Source of the DNA: Trametes villosa
Lineage: Eukaryota > Basidiomycota > Agaricomycetes > Polyporales > Polyporaceae
Direction: 5' to 3'
Length of the DNA: 64,000 nt
Assembly (NCBI GenBank): GCA_002964805.2
Contig: PUDQ02000057.1
Location: forward strand, 620,001-684,000
Positions 3,493-51,848 of the stretch are shown here, piece after piece. A program made the translations under genes and the position numbers. Each line of letters begins with the position of its first letter. The stretch's first letter is position 1. The notes under the pieces are model-generated. The model was not told the origin of the DNA. It ran no database searches and saw nothing but the letters and a program-made list of their open reading frames with translations.

Positions 3493-3558
3493 AAAAATAA
3501 ATATTGAGACCCGTAGGTCTACCACTCCGGGAAAGCGTGTCATCCTTGTGCAGGGGCC

Positions 3559-3589
<31 letters not shown>

Positions 3590-3613
3590 TTCGTATGTCA
3601 CCCCGAAGGGGAC
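3493..3613 (-). ncRNA. U6 spliceosomal snRNA
   Basis: Read on the minus strand, the gene starts with a stable 5' hairpin (CCCC-TTCG-GGGG type). It continues through the invariant U6 core AATTGGAACGATACAGAGAA, including the ACAGAGA box that pairs with the 5' splice site. GATTAGCATGGCCCCTGC follows, with the AGC catalytic triad, and then AAGGATGACACGC. A 3' stem-loop (AGACC-TACG-GGTCT) and a TTTTT Pol III stop at 3497-3493 close the gene. U6 is the catalytic snRNA of the spliceosome. No intron is visible, unlike some yeast U6 genes. The exact 3' end is uncertain because the tail is longer than in human U6. The gene is divergent from a tRNA-Ala 110 bases away. Confidence 0.95.
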
Positions 3614-3723: not shown

Positions 3724-3797
3724 GGGCATGTGGTGTAGTTGGTTATCACGCTCGCTTAGCATGCGAGAGGGGTCCGGTTCAATCCCGGACATGTCCA
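3724..3797 (+). tRNA. tRNA-Ala(AGC), copy 1
   Basis: The acceptor stem GGGCATG/CATGTCC contains the G3:U70 wobble that identifies tRNA-Ala. The anticodon loop TTAGCAT gives anticodon AGC. The T arm is GTCCGG-TTCAATC-CCGGAC. There is no intron. A TTTTT terminator follows at 3801-3805. Identical genes lie at 9660-9733 (minus) and 27989-28062 (plus). Confidence 0.97.
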
Positions 3798-36790: not shown

Positions 36791-36802
36791 GGCCCGGCCG
36801 CG

Positions 36803-36809
36803 TATAAAA
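36803..36809 (+). promoter_or_regulatory. TATA box heading RNA-repeat unit A
   Basis: TATAAAA follows a GC-rich stretch. It is the first of three TATA-like boxes, each preceding a copy of the repeat arrangement. Confidence 0.5.
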
Positions 36810-37185
36810 GCCCGCGGGTCGACGCCCTCCCTTTCCTCAGCACCTCCACCAGCTCTCATCCCCCGAGTCATCCAAAGGCGTGCGCTGCAATCGCGGTGCA
36901 CGCAGCCCTCGAGTGGGATCGGCCAGTACGTTCTCTCCTCACCCTCTGGGCGACCTCATCGCTAACCTCTCGGGCCCTCGCGCCGTCATCTGCACAGCTC
37001 ACATCGATTGTAAGTAGCTCTCGCTTAACTCGCTCCTCATCTCGCTCACTGTGACTGCAGGTCGTGTCCAACGCGACGACCGATGGTGGCGGCCCGCACC
37101 TCAGCGGCGGGCAGCGCTGATCCCGACGCGAATGGTCAGTCTATTTCCTCTCTTCCTTCTCATTGTGGCGCTGACCTCCATCCAG

Positions 37186-37321
37186 TTGGTTCGCGTCGAA
37201 CATGGTTCGAATCCCCAACACGGGCCCGGGGACAGCTAAACGGCTGAACTCGGGCTACGGCGTGGGCCTCCTCGGGAGGTCCGCCGGGGACGCCACCTAG
37301 TCCGGGCCGCTTAAACCTGGG
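37186..37321 (+). repeat. Exon X, copy 1
   Basis: An acceptor (CTGACCTCCATCCAG) comes before TTGGTTCGCG and a donor (GTGCGT) follows. The exon contains GGTTCGAATCC, which resembles a tRNA T-arm or B-box, and a strong hairpin GGGCCTCC-TCG-GGAGGTCC inside GGCG...CGCC. The second copy is at 42105-42239 with the same splice edges. Confidence 0.6.
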
Positions 37322-37750
37322 GTGCGTCTCTTGCTACCTCGCGCTATATGCACGATGCTGACGTCGCGCTTTCTATCCAGCCCGCCGCCACCTGTACTGC
37401 CGCCACGGTATCGCACGGTGGCGCCACCTCACTCTCAACTTACGCCCTCCTTTACAGCTAACCGCCCTATGAACGCCACCATGACCGGCACGCGCATCCG
37501 CCACCGCGCATCATGCTAACTCTCCTCTACGCCGTCGCCACCACCGCCACACCACTATGCTTATCAGTATGTATGTCGGCCACCACGCCGCGATTGCACC
37601 GCATCAAGGGGCCGGAAAATGGTCGTCGCACGCGTGCACCACGTAGTGCACGGTGCGTCTCAAGTCGCCGGCGAAGACACAAGAGGCCGAGTAAATGGGC
37701 GTCGCGCGGCGCCACGATTGGCAGCCGCGCGTCTCAAGTCACCGGCCGAA

Positions 37751-37836
37751 GACCCCCGGGGATAGCGCAGGCCTCTTCGTGGCCCCCGGGACTAGTACCC
37801 GCCGCGCTTCGCCGCGGCGGGGAAGCCAACTGCGCT
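37751..37836 (+). repeat. Structured RNA module 1 (L type)
   Basis: CCCGGG can pair with CCCGGG across the GGCC...GGCC hairpin. AGCGCAG pairs with CTGCGCT at long range. P3 is CCCGCCGCG/CGCGGCGGG. The conserved linker is GGGGAAGCCAAC. Confidence 0.7.
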
Positions 37837-37991
37837 CGACAACCAGCCTCGTGAGGACGCCACCAGGTGAGCTGTCCGTCGTTGCTCGCATGCGATTGGC
37901 GGCACTGACTCTGCTCTTCGCAGTGTGCTACCACTATCGAGCGCGCCCCGCTCGAGGGGAGCGTTCGCGCCGCTGCACGCGTCCTCATCGT

Positions 37992-38047
37992 GTGCCTCAA
38001 GACCGCGTGCCTCAAGTCTGCGTGCTTCAAGTCTGCGTGCCTCAAGA
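37992..38047 (+). repeat. 15-bp tandem repeat (four copies of GTGCCTCAAG-type unit)
   Basis: Units start at 37992, 38007, 38022 and 38037 with the pattern GTGCYTCAAGNCYGC. The array runs directly into structured module 2. Other modules are preceded by only one or two copies. Confidence 0.75.
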
Positions 38048-38160
38048 CCCCCGAGGTACGGGGCCGGGCTCGCCCGGCTCCTGGCGCAGGCCTTTTCGCG
38101 GCCCTCGGGATAAGTACCCGCCGCCACACGCTGCGGCGGGGAAACCAACGTGCGCCGAAG
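38046..38160 (+). repeat. Structured RNA module 2 (S type)
   Basis: The 5' hairpin is GACCCC/GGGG, the second hairpin is CCGGG/CCCGG, GGCGCA pairs with TGCGCC, and P3 is CCCGCCGC/GCGGCGGG. GGGGAAACCAACG is conserved. GTAGGTGC follows. Confidence 0.7.
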
Positions 38161-38367
38161 GTAGGTGCTGGTCGGGCCTTGCTCTCCGCACTCGAGAAGT
38201 AGCTTCATGGGGGAGGCCTGCAGGTCAGTCGGTTGCCACTACGTCTAGTAGCTTTGAGCCAGTGCGCTGACGACTCTTTTGGACAGCGCGCTACCATCTG
38301 CAGGTCGCTCTAGCGACCGCCGCCGCCTCTACCTTCCCCACTGCGTGCCTCAACGCGTGTGCCTCAA

Positions 38368-38487
38368 GATCCCCGAGGTACGGGGTCGAGCATCGCGCTC
38401 GACTCCCGGCGCAGGCCTTTCCGTGGCCCTCGGGATAAGTACTCGTCGTCGCTTCGCGTCCGCGGGGAAACCAACGTGCGCCGAAGG
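38368..38487 (+). repeat. Structured RNA module 3 (S type)
   Basis: The second hairpin is TCGAGC/GCTCGA, and GGCGCA/TGCGCC is kept. P3 is weaker, with two mismatches. GTAAGTGC follows. Confidence 0.65.
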
Positions 38488-38772
38488 TAAGTGCGGGCGG
38501 CAACGCCACCAGCACTCGACTCCCAGCCGCTTTGGAGCGCTCGCAGGTGAGCTTCGCGTCTCGGCACTCGTGACTGGTGCAGCGCTGACCTCTCGTCTCG
38601 GTCAGCGTGCAATCATCCCTCGGGCGCGTCGTTGTCGCGGAAACGTACGTGCGCCCTCCTTTCCTCGATGCATGCGGGATACTGATATCGGTGCATCAGG
38701 TCACTTCAACGATCGCGTCCTCCGCCGCTGCGAGTGTCGCCATCGCCGTGTGCCTCAAAATGCGTGCCTCAA

Positions 38773-38900
38773 GATCCCCGAGGTACGGGGTCGTGCGCGC
38801 CCTCGAGCGTGCTCGACTCCTGGCGCAGGCCTCTCCGTGGCCCTCGGGATGAGTACCCGTCGCCGTACGCTGCGACGGGGAAACAAACGTGCGCCGAAGG
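38773..38900 (+). repeat. Structured RNA module 4 (S type)
   Basis: P3 is CCCGTCGC/GCGACGGG, a paired change from CCCGCCGC/GCGGCGGG. The linker is GGGGAAACAAACG. GTAAGTGC follows. Confidence 0.68.
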
Positions 38901-39099
38901 TAAGTGCAGCGGCAAAGCTCGCTACACTCGAGTACCCGCCTCTTCGAAACGCCTGCAGGTGAGCCGAACATTCTTATACTCGCGACCGGAGAGCTGACGT
39001 TCCGTCTGGGACAGCGTGCTACCATCCCCGGGCAGATCGCGCCCAACGCCGCTTCAGCCCGCGTCATCACTATGCGTGCCTCAAGATCGTGTGCCTCAA

Positions 39100-39214
39100 G
39101 ACCCCCGAGGTACGGGGTCGAGCATGCGCTTGGCCCCCGGCGCAGGCCTTTTCGCGGCCCTCGGGATAAGTACCCGCCGCATGCCGCGGCGGGGAAACCA
39201 ACGTGCGCCAAAGG
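39100..39214 (+). repeat. Structured RNA module 5 (S type)
   Basis: The 5' hairpin GACCCC/GGGGTC is perfect. P3 is CCCGCCGC/GCGGCGGG with a short loop. GGCGCA/TGCGCC is kept. This is the last module of unit A. Confidence 0.68.
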
Positions 39215-39326
39215 TGAGGCTAGGAACCTCCGTCGGTTCACATCCCATGGCACGCGGATGCGTGTTCTGCGATAGCGGCACACGCAGCCCTCGTGCGGGA
39301 TGTACCGGTGGTGGGCGGCCGGGGGG

Positions 39327-39334
39327 TATAAGAA
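39327..39334 (+). promoter_or_regulatory. TATA box heading RNA-repeat unit B
   Basis: TATAAGAA lies in GGGGGTATAAG, within a block (ACCGGTGGTGGGCGGCC before, CTCGCCCG and CACCACCA after) repeated almost unchanged around 41220. Confidence 0.5.
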
Positions 39335-40464
39335 CCTCCTCGCCCGTTTCCTCTCCTTATACCACCACCAACCTCGAGCTCGAGTATCCTCTCGAGCCTC
39401 GAGCAGCCGTGCCCGCTCAACTGGCGGGCGGGGCAGCACGCGCCTCCACGTTCGTGGTAAGTCGTCGCGTTGGTTGGCGGCGACGACAGTGACTCACGCT
39501 CGCAACCTTCCAGGTGTCGAGGCGCATCTATACTGACCGCATGCTTTTGTGAGTACTTCTCTGAACATTTCGTCCTTCTGCTTAGCTTACCACCCCTGTA
39601 GAACAGGAAGCGTTCGAGGCATGGCATAAGCCCTCTTGCCACAGTACCACCATGACCGCGGTGTATGAACGGCTCGCGCCTCGTACGTATTCATCTGCAC
39701 CCACTACCGTACGCCGACCCTAACGCGCACTACATTGAAAGGCAGCGCGTCGGCTTCGACACCTAACGGGCATATCAGGACTCCCCTCCGCGGGGTAAGC
39801 GGGAGGTGCCCTATCAGCCCTCTTCGCCAAGTCCGCGCCTCGCGGCTGCGGCACGGCAGTGGACTATCTGCAACGCTCTCCTCCGGGCGACGTCGACGTC
39901 CACTGTGCTCCGGTTGAGGTTCCCGAGTCGGACAGCATTTGCGTGTTCCGGTCTCTCCCTCGGCGCGATCCCCACCGCGGGGCTATCGGAGCGCGCCCCC
40001 ACTCGGGGGCGTCCTGGAAGTGCCAAAATCGGGGAGCGCGAAGCCTTGGGTCGAGCCACCAACTGCCCTCTGGGCGCCGCGTGTGCTTCCTCCCTTGAGC
40101 GCGCTCCTCAGGTGGGCGACTGCGGTTTCGGACCGTGGCGCCGCCGCCCCTCGGTCTACCTCGCGCGCACGCGATCGTGCTCCAGCGCGGCGTGCAAGCG
40201 TGGCTGACCAGTGCTAGCCGGAGCCCTCTGCGCAAAGGCTAACACATCGGCTTCGGCCACCCCATCCTTTCCAGGTCCCTTCAATCTCGCCTCAATTCGC
40301 GGCCATCGCTTGCGAAGATAGACGTCAAGTCAATGCGACAACAAGGATATTTATGCTTACTTATGCTTTATGACCACGACGCGGACAATCAACACCAACA
40401 ATCCTCAGGCCCTGGTGTGCATCAAGAGGCTGCGACTCGCCCAAACGGGCGAGTTGCAGAGTAT

Positions 40465-40548
40465 TCCCCGGGGATAGCGCAGGCCTCATCGTGGCCCCCG
40501 GGTCTAGTACCCGCCGCACCTCGTCGCGGCGGGGAAGCCAACTGCGCT
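40465..40548 (+). repeat. Structured RNA module 6 (L type)
   Basis: CCCCGGGGATAGCGCAGGCC begins the core. AGCGCAG/CTGCGCT and P3 CCCGCCGC/GCGGCGGG are intact, and the P3 loop is expanded. Confidence 0.7.
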
Positions 40549-40730
40549 CGACAACCAGCCTCATGAGGACGCCCACAGGTGAGTTATTCGTCAAATCTCG
40601 TACGCCATTGGCGGCGCTGACGCTGTTCTTCGCAGTGCGCTAGTACCAGTGATGAGCGCGACCTTCTCGAGGGGAGCGTTCGCGCCGCTGCAGGCGTCCT
40701 CATCGTGTGCCTCAAGCCTGCGTGCCTCAA

Positions 40731-40852
40731 GATCCCCGAGGTACGGGGTTGAGCATCGCGCTCAACTCCCGGCGCAGGCCTTTCTGCGGCCCTCGGGATA
40801 AGTACTCGTCGCGGCCTAGTGCGGCGACGAGGAAACCAACATGCGCCAAAGG
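40731..40852 (+). repeat. Structured RNA module 7 (S type)
   Basis: This is the most informative copy. The second hairpin is GTTGAGC/GCTCAAC, a paired change from GTCGAGC/GCTCGAC. P3 is CTCGTCGC/GCGACGAG, with two paired changes. No GT follows AAAGG here, unlike the other nine S modules. Confidence 0.72.
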
Positions 40853-41219
40853 CCCGTGCGGGCGCCGCCTTGCAGCAGTGAGGCTAGCACTCGACTACCT
40901 GCCTCCGTGAGACACCTGCAGGTAAGTCACGCGCCCTTGAACTTGCTCGCGGGAGCTGACTCTTCGTCTCGACTAGCGCGCGATCACTCCTCGGGCGCGT
41001 CGCTGTCGCAGAAATGTGCGCACCTCTCTTTCGTTCCCCGTCCTGCGCTGTGCTAACATTCGCCTCTAGGTCACTTCAGCGACCGTGCTCGCCGCCGCTG
41101 CGGGCGTCACCACCACCGCGTGCCTCCCACGGCGCGCGAATGCGTGTGCTGCAACAGCAGCGCGCGTAGCCCTCGGGCGGGAACGCACCGGTGGTGGGCG
41201 GCCTGGGGGTATACGAACT

Positions 41220-41227
41220 CCCTCGCC
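41220..41227 (+). promoter_or_regulatory. TATA-like box heading RNA-repeat unit C
   Basis: TATACGAA lies in the same sequence block as the box at 39327. Confidence 0.4.
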
Positions 41228-41756
41228 CGCTTCCTCTCCCTTTGACACCACCACCATCCTCGAGCTCGAGTCTTCCCCCGAGCCTCGAGCAGCCGCGCCC
41301 GCTTAACTGGCGAGCGGGGCAGCACGCGCCTCCACCTTCATGGTAAGCTTTCGATTTCATTGACGATGATGACGGTAGCTCACGCTCGCAACACTTCAGG
41401 TGTTGAGGTGCAGCTGAACTCACCCTATGCTTTTGTAAGTACTTCTTTGTTCGTCTTACTGCCCTTCTGAGCTCACTGTCACCGCAGCACAGGATCTGGT
41501 TGAGAGGATTCTCTCCCCAAGGGGCTAGCGGGAGGCCGCCCCTGCTTCGGCCACCACCATCCACTTCCGCCTCGATATTGCCTGAATCTGCAACCATCGC
41601 TTGCGAACATAGACTTCAAGCCAATGCGACAACGTGGATACTCATGCTGATTTTATGATCTATGATTACGACGCGGACAACCAACACCAACAGTCCTCAA
41701 GCCTTGATGTGCATCAAGAGGCTGCGACTCGCCCAAACGGGCGAATTGCAGAGTAT

Positions 41757-41833
41757 TTTCCCGGGGATAGCGCAGGCCTCATCGTGGCCCCCGGGTCCAG
41801 TACTCGCCTCACGGCGGGGAAGCCAACTGCGCT
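41757..41833 (+). repeat. Structured RNA module 8 (L type, shortened)
   Basis: The core GGGGATAGCGCAGGCC and TGCGCT are kept, but P3 is reduced to CTCGCC/GGCGGG. Confidence 0.6.
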
Positions 41834-42104
41834 GGGGCCTGTTCCTCGCTTCATCATGAGCTGGCGGGCCCCTCAAGCCGCCTGTGCGCGACAAACTGGT
41901 GAGTCTCCTTCGCTAGTGTGCGCTTGTGTTATTATGCTGACGTTCATGACGACTGACAGGTCGCGCCGATGACTTGCGTCCAATGCGACGAGCGATCATC
42001 GGTGAAGGCCCGCGCTTTTCCCTGGCGGGCAGCGATGGTCCTGACGCGAATGGTCGGCCTACTGCCCCTCGTCCGTCTCAAACATGACACTGACGTTCGC
42101 TCAG

Positions 42105-42239
42105 TTGGTTCGCGCCAGGCTTGGTTTGAACCCCCATCACGGGCCCGAGGACAGCCAAACGGCTGAACCCAGTCCCTGGCGTGGGCCTCCTCGGGAGGTC
42201 CGTAGGGGACGCCACCCAGCCGGGCCACTGGAATCTTGG
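42105..42239 (+). repeat. Exon X, copy 2
   Basis: The acceptor CTGACGTTCGCTCAG and the donor GTACGT match the edges of copy 1 at 37186-37321. The hairpin GGGCCTCC-TCG-GGAGGTCC is unchanged, while the T-arm-like motif is altered to GGTTTGAACCC. Confidence 0.6.
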
Positions 42240-42674
42240 GTACGTCCCCCGCTCTCTCCCGTGATTGACGCGCTCTGGGCGTGATGTTGACGTTACACTC
42301 CTGTCTAGCCCCCCGCCGCATACATTGCCGTTCTGGCATTGTACTAGCAGGCGCCGCCGTACTCTCAACTCACGCCTTCCTTCACAGCCGACCGCTCTAT
42401 GAACACCGCTAAGCCCCTGTATGCGCGCCCACCACCACCCACCATGCTAACTAGCCTCGCCTGCGCCGCCACCACTATGCTTATCACTGATGTCGGCCAC
42501 CACCGTGAGCCGCATGATTGCACCGCATCAACGAGCCGGACAATGGGCGTCGCATACGTGCACCACGCAGTGCACGGTGCGTCTCAAGTCGCCGGCGAAG
42601 ACGCAAGAGGCCGAGTAAATGGGCGTCGCGCGGCGCCACGATTGGCAGCCGCGCGTCTCAAGTCACCGGCTGAA

Positions 42675-42760
42675 GACCCCCGGGGATAGCGCAGGCCTCT
42701 TCGTGGCCCCCGGGACTAGTACCCGCCGCGCGTTGTCGCGGCGGGGAAGCCAACTGCGCT
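42675..42760 (+). repeat. Structured RNA module 9 (L type)
   Basis: Nearly identical to module 1. P3 is CCCGCCGCG/CGCGGCGGG with a different loop (CGTTGT). AGCGCAG/CTGCGCT is kept. Confidence 0.7.
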
Positions 42761-42915
42761 TGACAACCAGCCTCGTGAGGACGCCACCAGGTGAGCTGTC
42801 CGTCGTTGCTCGTACGCGATTGGCGGCGCTGACTCTGTTTTTCGCAGTGTGCTACCACTATCGAGCGCGCCCCGCTCGAGGGGAGCGTTCGCGCCGCGGC
42901 AGGCGTCCTCGCCGT

Positions 42916-42971
42916 GTGCCTCAAGCCCGCGTGCCTCAAGCCTGCGTGCCTCAAGACTGCGTGCCTCAAGA
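42916..42971 (+). repeat. 15-bp tandem repeat (four copies)
   Basis: Units start at 42916, 42931, 42946 and 42961 (GTGCCTCAAGCCCGC and variants) and run into module 10, as at 37992-38047. Confidence 0.75.
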
Positions 42972-43086
42972 CCCCCGAGGTACGGGGCCGAGCACGCTCG
43001 GCTCCCGGCGCAGGCCTTTTCGTGGCCCTCGGGATAAGTACTCGTCGTCGCTTCGCGACGGCGAGGAAACCAACGTGCGCCGAAGG
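42970..43086 (+). repeat. Structured RNA module 10 (S type)
   Basis: The second hairpin is CCGAGC/GCTCGG. P3 is CTCGTCGTCGC/GCGACGGCGAG, fully paired with one wobble, despite many changes from module 2. Confidence 0.72.
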
Positions 43087-43367
43087 TAAGTGCGGGCGGC
43101 AACGCTACCTGCACTCGACTCTCAGCCGCTTTGGAGCGCTCGCGGGTGAGTTTCACGTCTCGGGATGCGCGAACGAAGCGCTGACTTCTCGTCTCGATCA
43201 GCGTGCACTTATCCCTCGGGCGCGTCGTTGTCGCGGAAACGTACGTGCTCTTCCCTCTTCGTGGCGCACGCGGGGTACTGATATCTGTGTCTCAGGTCAC
43301 TTCACCGATCGCGCCCGCCGCCGCTGCAAGTGTCTCCATCGCCGTGTGCCTCAAAATGTGTGCCTCA

Positions 43368-43496
43368 ACTTCCCCGAGGTAGGGAGTCGCGAACGCCTTC
43401 GTGCGTCGTCGACTCCTGGCGCAGGCCTTTCCGTGGCCCTCGGGATTAGTACCCGCCGCCGTACGCGGCGGCGGGGAAACTAACGTGCGCCGAAGG
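43368..43496 (+). repeat. Structured RNA module 11 (S type)
   Basis: P3 is CCCGCCGCC/GGCGGCGGG. The linker is GGGGAAACTAACG, and GGCGCA/TGCGCC is kept. The 5' hairpin is changed to CTTCCC/GGGAG. Confidence 0.65.
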
Positions 43497-43703
43497 TAAG
43501 TGCAGGCGGGGCCTTGCTCGCCGCACTCGAGAAGTAGCCTCGTGGGGGAGGCCGGCAGGTGAGTTGATTGCCATCGCGTCTTCGTGCGAGTTCAGATGCT
43601 AACGCTTTGCTTGGGGCAGCGCGCCACTATCCGCGGGTCGCTTCGGTGACCGCATCCGCCGCTGCCGCCTTCCCCATTGCGTGCTTCAAACCGTGTGCCT
43701 CAA

Positions 43704-43823
43704 GAACCCCGAGGTATGGAGCCGAGCGTGACGCTCGACTCCCGGCGCAGGCCTTTCCGTGGCCCTCGGGATGAGTACCCGCCGTCGCACAACGGCGGCG
43801 GGGAAACCAACGTGCGCCAAAGG
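43704..43823 (+). repeat. Structured RNA module 12 (S type)
   Basis: The second hairpin is CGAGCG/CGCTCG. P3 is CCGCCGT/ACGGCGG. GTACGTGC follows the AAAGG end. Confidence 0.67.
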
Positions 43824-44120
43824 TACGTGCAACACGCTCCGCCTTACGGCGGGAAAGCTGGCACTCGACTACCAGCATCCGTGAGATGCCTGCAGGTGAG
43901 TCGCACATCAGCGATCTCGCGCGCAGGGATCTGACTCTTCGTCTCCACTATCAGCGCGCAACTACTCTTCGGGCGCGTCGCTGTCGCAGAAATGTGCGTT
44001 ATTTCCCCTCTTGCCTCTGTCCTGCGGGTGACTGACATATGTCCTGCAGGTCACTTCGGCGATCGCGCTCGCCGCCGCTGTAGACCTCACGACTGTGTGT
44101 CTCAAGTTCGCGTGCCTCAA

Positions 44121-44247
44121 GACCCTCGAGGTAGGGGGTCGCGCACGCCCTCGCGCGTGCCGGCTCCTGGCGCAGGCCTCTCCGTGGCCCTCGGGATGAG
44201 TACCCGCCGCCGCACGCTGCAGCGGGGAAACCAACATGCGCCAAAGG
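44121..44247 (+). repeat. Structured RNA module 13 (S type)
   Basis: The 5' hairpin GACCCTC/GGGGGTC differs from other copies but still pairs, with a wobble. P3 is shorter. GGCGCA/TGCGCC is kept. Confidence 0.62.
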
Positions 44248-44444
44248 TACGTGCAGGCCCCTCGTGGCCTTGCACTCGGCTCCCAGCCTCTGTTAGACGC
44301 CTGCAGGTGAGTCGAACCTCCTTATACTCGCGACCGGAGAGCTGACCCTTCCATTGGCACAGCGTACTACCATCCCCGGGCGCGTTGCGTCCGACGCCGC
44401 TGTAGGCGTCATCATCATGCGTGCCTCAAGACTGTGTGCTTCAA

Positions 44445-44569
44445 GATCCCCGAGGTACGGGGTCGAGGCTGAGTGCGTGCTCGGCTCCTGGCGCAGGCCT
44501 TTTCGTGGCCCTCGGGATAAGTACCTGCTGCCGCTACGCGGTCGCGGGGAAACCAACGTGCGCCAAAGG
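44445..44569 (+). repeat. Structured RNA module 14 (S type)
   Basis: This is the last copy. P3 pairs through ten of eleven positions with wobbles. The core GGCGCAGGCC and TGCGCCAAAGG are unchanged. Confidence 0.62.
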
Positions 44570-45047
44570 TGATGCTCGTGTACTCCACTGCGTTCCAGAT
44601 GTATGGCTGGGCAACCTTCATGTACTTCGTTTAGCCGTGGTGTCAATGTCGATGATATCGTTCTGCTGCTCTCAAACCCCTCGGTTTCACGCGCGTGAGT
44701 GAACGAACTGCCAGATGTATTCGTGAGACGTGAGAGAAGATACGACAGGCTACGACAACGGACGGACGAAGATGTCTGGCACGAAGTAAACCGAGAGGCA
44801 CCCTGACGGCCGCCCGGCTGAATCGATGCCGCATACGGAGCTTCGCTCTCCCCCGCATTAGTAACTCCGGTCGTCCATGGGCAGGGACGGGGAGCAGTTG
44901 TCGGGGTGGAAGGTCGCTGCACGGACGCGCGACGGGAGAACGCACACAGATGGAACGGTGCGCGGATGCTAGATGCTAATAATACATGTCTATGTTCAGT
45001 GTTCACCATCCCTGCGATACGAGTTAGCGCGAATGACCTCAGGTTGA

Positions 45048-51744: not shown

Positions 51745-51848
51745 GACACCATAGCCAAGTGGTTAAGGCGACAGATTAGAACGACTTCTCCGAAGCATGT
51801 ATCATCTGTTTCTCTCTGAGAGCGCAGGTTCGAACCCTGCTGGTGTCG
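51745..51848 (+). tRNA. tRNA-Ser(AGA) with a 22-nt intron
   Basis: The acceptor is GACACCA/TGGTGTC with discriminator G. The anticodon stem is ACAGA/TCTGT and the loop TTAGAA gives anticodon AGA at 51778-51780. The intron is 51782-51803, after position 37 as usual. A long class II variable arm (CTC...GAG) and the T arm GCAGG-TTCGAAC-CCTGC follow. A TTTTT stop lies at 51858-51862. Confidence 0.95.

What the first reader, a model, noticed from the sequence alone, without database searches (positions are those of the whole stretch)
36800..44600. Fourteen copies of an unrecognised structured RNA module in an 8-kb spliced-looking locus
Seen directly: ten S-type (about 115-130 nt) and four L-type (about 80-86 nt) modules, all sharing GCGCAGGCC near the start, NNNNCGNGGCC in the middle, GGGGAARCCAAC and TGCGC(C/T) at the end. 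No frame is shared between copies, and indels are not multiples of three. All copies are on one strand and lie between conserved splice signals. I cannot match it to tRNA, snRNA, snoRNA, rRNA, SRP, RNase P/MRP, telomerase RNA or the self-cleaving ribozymes I know. It may be a new lncRNA family with repeated protein-binding or catalytic modules.
Basis: partly seen in the sequence, partly recalled or inferred. Interest (0 to 1): 0.92.

Follow-up and report, generated by a model that had tools for sequence, protein, structure and literature searches.

The report
Fourteen tandem self-cutting fungal ribozymes
In a fungus likely close to Trametes (bracket mushrooms), one locus holds fourteen copies of an RNA module whose base-pairing pattern matches the fungal form of HDV-type self-cutting ribozymes; they are predicted to cut one likely non-coding locus's RNA into many pieces, and at least 140 further places in the genome match the module's core pattern.

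Summary
In detail: 14 modules (4 short-linker L, 10 long-linker S), one strand, 37755-44564. They are not an unknown RNA. Strand order P1-P2-P3-P3'-P1'-P4-P4'-P2', a covarying one-pair P1.1, an L3 U...CG loop and a C-N-A-A joiner give the HDV nested double pseudoknot. A C-G pair at the cut site, loop E in P4 and an extra base between P2 and P3 are the three marks of the fungal variant HDV ribozyme (PMC5640933), two members of which cleave in vitro. Rfam has no HDV match. Genome-wide at least 154 places in 105 groups; 139 parsed copies keep the pairs through compensatory changes. A weak protein hit points to the module in T. versicolor. In families A and M, conserved sequence stops near the ribozyme's 3' edge, so there it likely makes the 3' end of non-coding RNAs. 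The window array, the largest group found, likely cuts the RNA of three TATA-led units into pieces. Ribozyme class: known. Array and gene families: not found in print in my searches. Cleavage, transcription and splicing are untested.

The parts
37755..37836 (+). L-type ribozyme 1; predicted cut just 5' of 37755
   Evidence: P1 7/7, P2 6/6 pairs
38050..38156 (+). S-type ribozyme 2, with P1.2 hairpin in J1/2
38372..38482 (+). S-type ribozyme 3
38777..38895 (+). S-type ribozyme 4
39104..39209 (+). S-type ribozyme 5, last of unit 1
40467..40548 (+). L-type ribozyme 6, first of unit 2
40735..40847 (+). S-type ribozyme 7 (one L3 change, TG for CG)
41760..41833 (+). L-type ribozyme 8, first of unit 3
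42679..42760 (+). L-type ribozyme 9
42974..43081 (+). S-type ribozyme 10
43373..43491 (+). S-type ribozyme 11
43708..43818 (+). S-type ribozyme 12
44125..44242 (+). S-type ribozyme 13
44449..44564 (+). S-type ribozyme 14, last of the array
36803..36809 (+). TATAAAA, likely promoter of unit 1, followed by a pyrimidine-rich stretch
   Evidence: read from sequence; promoter role inferred
39327..39334 (+). TATAAGAA, likely promoter of unit 2
   Evidence: read from sequence; role inferred; 39361-39563 is 82% identical to 41247-41449 (D12)
41210..41217 (+). TATACGAA, likely promoter of unit 3
   Evidence: read from sequence; role inferred
37867..37923 (+). example of the short intron-like stretch between modules (AG|GTGAG...CTGAC...CAG|)
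   Evidence: signals aligned across 10 segments; splicing not tested
40430..40459 (+). hairpin ending 7 nt upstream of the first base of ribozyme 6
   Evidence: read from sequence
41722..41751 (+). hairpin ending 8 nt upstream of the first base of ribozyme 8
   Evidence: read from sequence

Best explanation
The fourteen modules carry the base-pairing pattern and the three distinguishing marks of the fungal variant of the HDV-like self-cleaving ribozyme, and they are predicted to cut likely spliced, likely non-coding precursor RNA at fourteen sites, each just 5' of its P1 helix. Shown from sequence: the pairs kept through compensatory changes across 139 genome copies, the C-G pair at the cut site, loop E strands, the P2/P3 extra base, the C-N-A-A joiner, and splice-like signals between modules. 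Inferred: that the copies cleave here; that transcription starts at three TATA boxes, each unit led by an L ribozyme; that cutting frees a series of RNA pieces, each starting with a ribozyme (5'-OH) and ending in a 2',3'-cyclic phosphate. In families A and M elsewhere in the genome the conserved sequence stops near the ribozyme's 3' edge, so there the ribozyme likely makes the 3' end of a structured RNA and the downstream piece is discarded.
For: Fold: over 139 copies (70 distinct cores) P1 pairs in 138-139 of 139 at each of 7 positions, P2 in 136-139 of 139 at each of 6, P3 in 138-139 of 139 at each of 3; both-side changes G-C/A-T at P1 pairs 4, 5, 7, P2 pairs 1 and 2, P3 pair 1; P1.1 (third L3 base with first base after P1') is paired 139 of 139 as T-A 75, A-T 62, C-G 2: 70 of 70 distinct cores against a shuffle maximum of 47. 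The 3 basal P4 pairs hold in 138-139 of 139. J1/2 forms a hairpin of at least 4 pairs in 67 of 67 copies with a longer J1/2, as in the mosquito HDV-like ribozyme with P1.2 (PMC4908430 passages). Fungal marks: C-G first pair 137 of 139 (T-G in 2), AGTA/GAA strands 138 of 139, one base between P2 and P3; compare PMC5640933 section 7. The base before the predicted cut is a pyrimidine in 138 of 139. Cross-species: T. versicolor predicted protein P0041 reads the L module in frame, on a contig of the same length as that of the relative of the window's BAG gene. Conservation: in 16 aligned family A loci, exon-like blocks and splice-site positions are kept, intron-like stretches have drifted, and identity falls to background after the ribozyme; mean pairwise identity in 52 A copies is 0.97 in the core and 0.35 then 0.23 in the next two 30-nt blocks, in 30 M copies 0.98, then 0.40 and 0.19.
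Against: No cleavage assay, RNA-seq or RACE was available. Rfam gives no HDV match at E up to 1 or 10. The first pair is C-G, not the R-Y pair of the general HDV consensus. P1.1 has one pair; the second position is a mismatch in 138 of 139. One control pairing (L3 base 3 with the third base after P1') also exceeds its shuffles, 55 of 70 distinct cores against a maximum of 43, though with 24 unpaired of 139: relatedness inflates these tests. P4 is less regular above its base: 13 of 139 copies pair fewer than 4 of the 5 lowest positions. The extra P2/P3 base is G or T (99 and 39 of 139), not the C said to be commonest. Seven of 139 copies have G for the second A of the joiner. An S-frame protein search found no relative, and the T. 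versicolor hit is weak (E 0.023). In the 52 A copies taken together the stretch 200 to 100 nt upstream of P2 is at background too (0.28) and the next 100 nt at 0.54, so the upstream conservation rests on subfamilies such as the 16 aligned loci. In family G (7 copies) identity falls only to 0.68 then 0.48 past the ribozyme, and L022-L024 share about 1 kb or more downstream, so the 3'-end rule is not universal.
Confidence: 0.8

Rival explanations
1. The modules keep the HDV fold but no longer cleave; they serve as repeated scaffolds or protein-binding sites in a long non-coding RNA.
For: No activity shown here; some trypanosomatid HDV-like copies in 3' UTRs showed no activity in vitro (PMC4035085 passages); one-pair P1.1.
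Against: The joiner's cytosine is present in 139 of 139 parsed copies, and the parser dropped no true module for lacking it; a pyrimidine precedes the cut in 138 of 139; two members of the same variant class cleave.
Confidence: 0.12
2. [quoted passage not shown]
For: At least 154 places, partly clustered; known HDV-like ribozymes at retrotransposon 5' ends (PMC3774820 and PMC4035085 passages); L022-L024 share sequence downstream of the ribozyme.
Against: 0 of 154 places lie within 3 kb, 1 within 5 kb and 4 within 10 kb of the 150 scored reverse-transcriptase matches, against 3.0, 4.9 and 9.9 expected at random (204 RT candidates, 150 scored, so a lower bound). In M, and in the aligned A loci, the shared sequence lies upstream of the ribozyme rather than downstream, and the A loci keep drifted intron-like stretches, unlike retrocopies.
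Confidence: 0.13
3. A repeated protein-coding module.
For: Some modules lie in open frames, and a T. versicolor predicted protein reads one (P0041).
Against: Different frames in different copies; exon-like blocks of family A differ by non-multiples of three, for example block 2 at 127, 128, 133, 134 and 142-145 nt; compensatory pair changes; an S-frame protein search found nothing.
Confidence: 0.02

Closest known systems
Fungal variant HDV self-cleaving ribozymes (Li and Breaker 2017, PMC5640933)
   Same: Nested double pseudoknot; C-G pair at the cut site; loop E in P4; extra base between P2 and P3; varied gene contexts (230 representatives in 26 species).
   Different: Extra base is G or T, not mostly C. 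The words tandem, repeat and Trametes do not occur in that paper's main text; a 14-copy array and RNA genes that end in the ribozyme are not described in the section I read. Its supplement and species list were not readable here.
Large HDV-like ribozyme drz-Agam-2-1 of mosquito (PMC4908430)
   Same: Structured J1/2 (P1.2), which there speeds cleavage (passages).
   Different: Its sequence was not compared here; the S modules have the C-G cut-site pair and loop E of the fungal variant.
HDV-like ribozymes of R2 and L1Tc/ingi retrotransposons (PMC3774820, PMC4035085)
   Same: Fold, 6-7 bp P1, a strictly kept catalytic C, L3 U-G pair; dispersed in many copies.
   Different: There the ribozyme sits at the 5' end of a retrotransposon or its derivative; here 0 of 154 places are within 3 kb of a scored reverse-transcriptase match and in families A and M the conserved part lies upstream.

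Membership tests
Fungal variant HDV ribozyme | Nested pseudoknot with P1, P2, P3, P4 in HDV order | tested here: met
   Pairs kept in 139 parsed copies with compensatory changes
Fungal variant HDV ribozyme | C-G base pair at the cleavage site | tested here: met
   137 of 139, T-G in 2; feature
Fungal variant HDV ribozyme | P4 partly replaced by a loop E motif | tested here: met
   AGTA/GAA strands in 138 of 139; search patterns and parser required AG[CT][AG], so partly by selection; the loop E letters are recalled, not from a call
Fungal variant HDV ribozyme | Extra nucleotide, most commonly C, between P2 and P3 | tested here: met
   One base in the parsed layout of all 139, but G 99, T 39, C 1
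Fungal variant HDV ribozyme | Self-cleavage at the base of P1 | not testable with these tools
   Needs an in vitro assay
HDV-like ribozymes, general consensus | P1.1 pseudoknot pair(s) between L3 and the strand after P1' | tested here: met
   One pair, 139 of 139, three pair types; second position unpaired in 138 of 139; PMC4908430 speaks of one or two pairs
HDV-like ribozymes, general consensus | R-Y pair at the cleavage site | tested here: not met
   C-G in 137, T-G in 2 of 139, as in the fungal variant
HDV-like ribozymes, general consensus | Catalytic C in J4/2 | tested here: met
   C-N-A-[AG] in 139 of 139; the parser required the C but dropped no true module for it
Rfam 15 families | Match at gathering score, or at E up to 10 | tested here: not met
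   Window at gathering score; array at E 10; nine other loci at E 1: no HDV family listed
HDV-like retrotransposon | Reverse transcriptase in the element | tested here: not met
   0 of 154 places within 3 kb, 4 within 10 kb, of a scored RVT_1 match; non-autonomous elements not excluded

The most novel reading that the evidence does not exclude
This fungus has built a nuclear RNA-processing system on self-cleaving ribozymes: around a hundred TATA-driven, structured non-coding RNA loci make their 3' end by an HDV-like ribozyme instead of poly(A) processing, and the window locus has turned this into a polycistron whose up to seven ribozymes per unit release a series of small RNAs, with splicing and self-cleavage competing on each piece.
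Probability: 0.4. Interest if true: 0.87.

Novelty: new variant of a known kind. Interest (0 to 1): 0.7.

Why it matters
The role of HDV-like ribozymes outside viruses and retrotransposons is an open question, and the fungal ones are reported with widely variable gene associations. Here they sit in a repeated, testable context: paralogous RNA loci whose conservation stops at the ribozyme edge, and one 14-ribozyme array. If they cleave, they would be a natural ribozyme-based 3'-end and polycistron processing system in a mushroom. It also shows that Rfam's models miss these copies and that at least one likely copy is listed as a protein.

Tried and rejected
Known Rfam RNAs: none for the modules. 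Protein-coding repeat: rejected. Retrotransposon 5' end: not supported for families A and M. A first guess that the M leader (the GTGCGT family) encodes a short peptide: the distance from TGGGTGG to the cut varies from 65 to 69 nt in the 29 of 30 copies that have it, and the 20-residue peptide gave only one PDB match, at E 0.28; rejected. Second P1.1 pair: absent. IMG/VR scan for the core pattern: one match, in an 8-kb phage-like contig, inside a long open frame; taken as chance. Third protein search with an S frame: nothing. A 5' splice-like AGGT straight after the ribozyme: the pattern tried fits the S spacing only, and 9 of its 10 places are in the window array (2 control matches); among 16 aligned A loci 10 have CAGGTA straight after, so it is a frequent but not general feature. 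Covariance model R1 was built but could not be used on the whole genome. My nine paper searches (listings, cut to the best few) listed no paper on a tandem HDV-like array in a non-coding gene; subscription papers and supplements were not seen.
Full report
Observation. Fourteen copies are present on the + strand at 37755-44564, four L and ten S. The number of seed matches (21) exceeds that in all 100 shuffles. The array is the largest group in the genome: the 154 listed places fall in 105 groups more than 8 kb apart, and the next largest group has 4. The 154 are the 91 places with at most one mismatch listed plus the 63; one search counts 116 with up to two mismatches (2 in its control) but lists only part, so 154 is a lower bound.

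Fold. From 144 core matches in all held DNA, 139 were parsed; of the 5 left out, one is a repeat core (L099) and four are chance matches. Strand order is P1, P2, P3, P3', P1', P4, P4', P2'. P1 is 7 bp, P2 6 bp, P3 3 bp, L3 7 nt. Across 70 distinct cores pairs are kept through both-side changes in P1, P2 and P3, and the first P1.1 pair changes between T-A, A-T and C-G with no exception. Four control pairings next to it pair in 4, 65, 57 and 115 of 139; the last two-off pairing (115) also exceeds its shuffles, which shows how relatedness inflates the test. P3 pair 1 is G-C in 90 and A-T in 49 copies. The three basal P4 pairs hold, higher ones less: 102 copies pair 5 of 5, 24 pair 4 of 5, 13 fewer. 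Limits: the P1 5' strand was chosen as the best 7-mer within 94 nt and P2' as the best of three offsets, so their pairing is partly by construction, above all in the 67 copies with a longer J1/2; in the other 72, J1/2 is at most 5 nt. Search patterns and parser fixed parts of P3, L3 and the strand after P1'.

Identity. PMC5640933 (section 7 read whole; outline and passages) reports 230 fungal HDV variants in 26 species, with a C-G pair at the cut site, a loop E in P4 and an extra base between P2 and P3; constructs from Penicillium chrysogenum and Aspergillus niger cleave RNA, at the base of P1. All three features are met here. Rfam lists no HDV family for the window, the array or nine other loci, in keeping with the paper's remark that two of these features violate the earlier search criteria. 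The general consensus R-Y pair is not met, so this is filed under the fungal variant. S modules carry a hairpin in J1/2; in a mosquito ribozyme such a P1.2 speeds cleavage (PMC4908430 passages). The numbering of HDV residues that guided me is recalled.

Organism and conservation. The window's BAG-domain protein has its best named matches in Trametes versicolor, 62% identical, so the fungus is likely a Trametes or close to one. A search with an ORF spanning two modules found one protein, T. versicolor TRAVEDRAFT_73015 (E 0.023), which reads KTPGDSAGLFVAPGTST and RGSQLRST as the L module here does, after repeats read as VCLKS, which GTGTGCCTCAAG repeats would give. Its contig length, 2,863,008, equals that of the T. 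versicolor BAG protein, which suggests but does not prove synteny. An S-frame search found nothing. No other species' DNA could be searched.

Context. Of the 29 modules first fetched with 1.5-kb flanks, 16 (family A) were aligned: a TATA-like stretch, three conserved exon-like blocks with kept splice signals and drifted introns, then the ribozyme, then no conservation. Block lengths differ by non-multiples of three; covariation in the blocks themselves is weak. Taken over all 52 A-like copies, upstream identity is lower (0.28 and 0.54 in two 100-nt blocks). Family M (30 copies) has a TATA-like GATAAGTA stretch, a folded leader of about 100 nt (one pair is U-A in 26 and G-C in 4, many pairs do not vary) ending in GTGCGT right before, or within a few bases of, the predicted cut. 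Identity falls after the ribozyme in A and M, less so in G; L022-L024 share downstream sequence. In the window each TATA box precedes an L ribozyme: L-S-S-S-S, then L-S, then L-L-S-S-S-S-S. Pairs of L then S also occur on C74, C79, C99 and C103.

Mechanism. Most likely: transcription from the TATA boxes, splicing of short introns, and self-cleavage 5' of each P1. In A and M this would leave a structured RNA with a 2',3'-cyclic phosphate as product and drop the ribozyme and what follows. Within the window's runs the predicted cuts are 268-417 nt apart, so it would give a series of pieces of that size before splicing. Transcription, splicing and cleavage are all inferred. The mobile-element rival is weakened by the lack of reverse transcriptase near the copies, though a non-autonomous element is not excluded.

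Verdict. A known ribozyme class, in an arrangement that I did not find in print (listings), with a clear test.

Noticed in passing
window 3497-3613 (-): U6 snRNA gene (87 bits), about 12 bases longer than the Rfam model, the extra bases near its 3' end.
   Followed up: partly
window 37166-37305 and 42085-42224: A 140-nt repeat, 80% identical, in units 1 and 3, with a tRNA T-arm-like GGTTCGAATCCCC in the first copy; structured-looking, unidentified.
   Followed up: no
T. versicolor TRAVEDRAFT_73015 (P0041): A predicted uncharacterized protein that appears to be a mistranslated ribozyme locus.
   Followed up: partly
window 51745-51848 and ARAGORN calls at 3724, 9660, 22283, 27989: Rfam reports one tRNA; ARAGORN in bacterial mode lists four others that Rfam does not, and misses that one.
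   Followed up: no
L042 and L046, about 180 nt upstream of the family M ribozyme: The TATA-like GGGGATAAGTACC of family M resembles the strand after P1' in the ribozyme; two such stretches match the core regex, by chance or descent.
   Followed up: no
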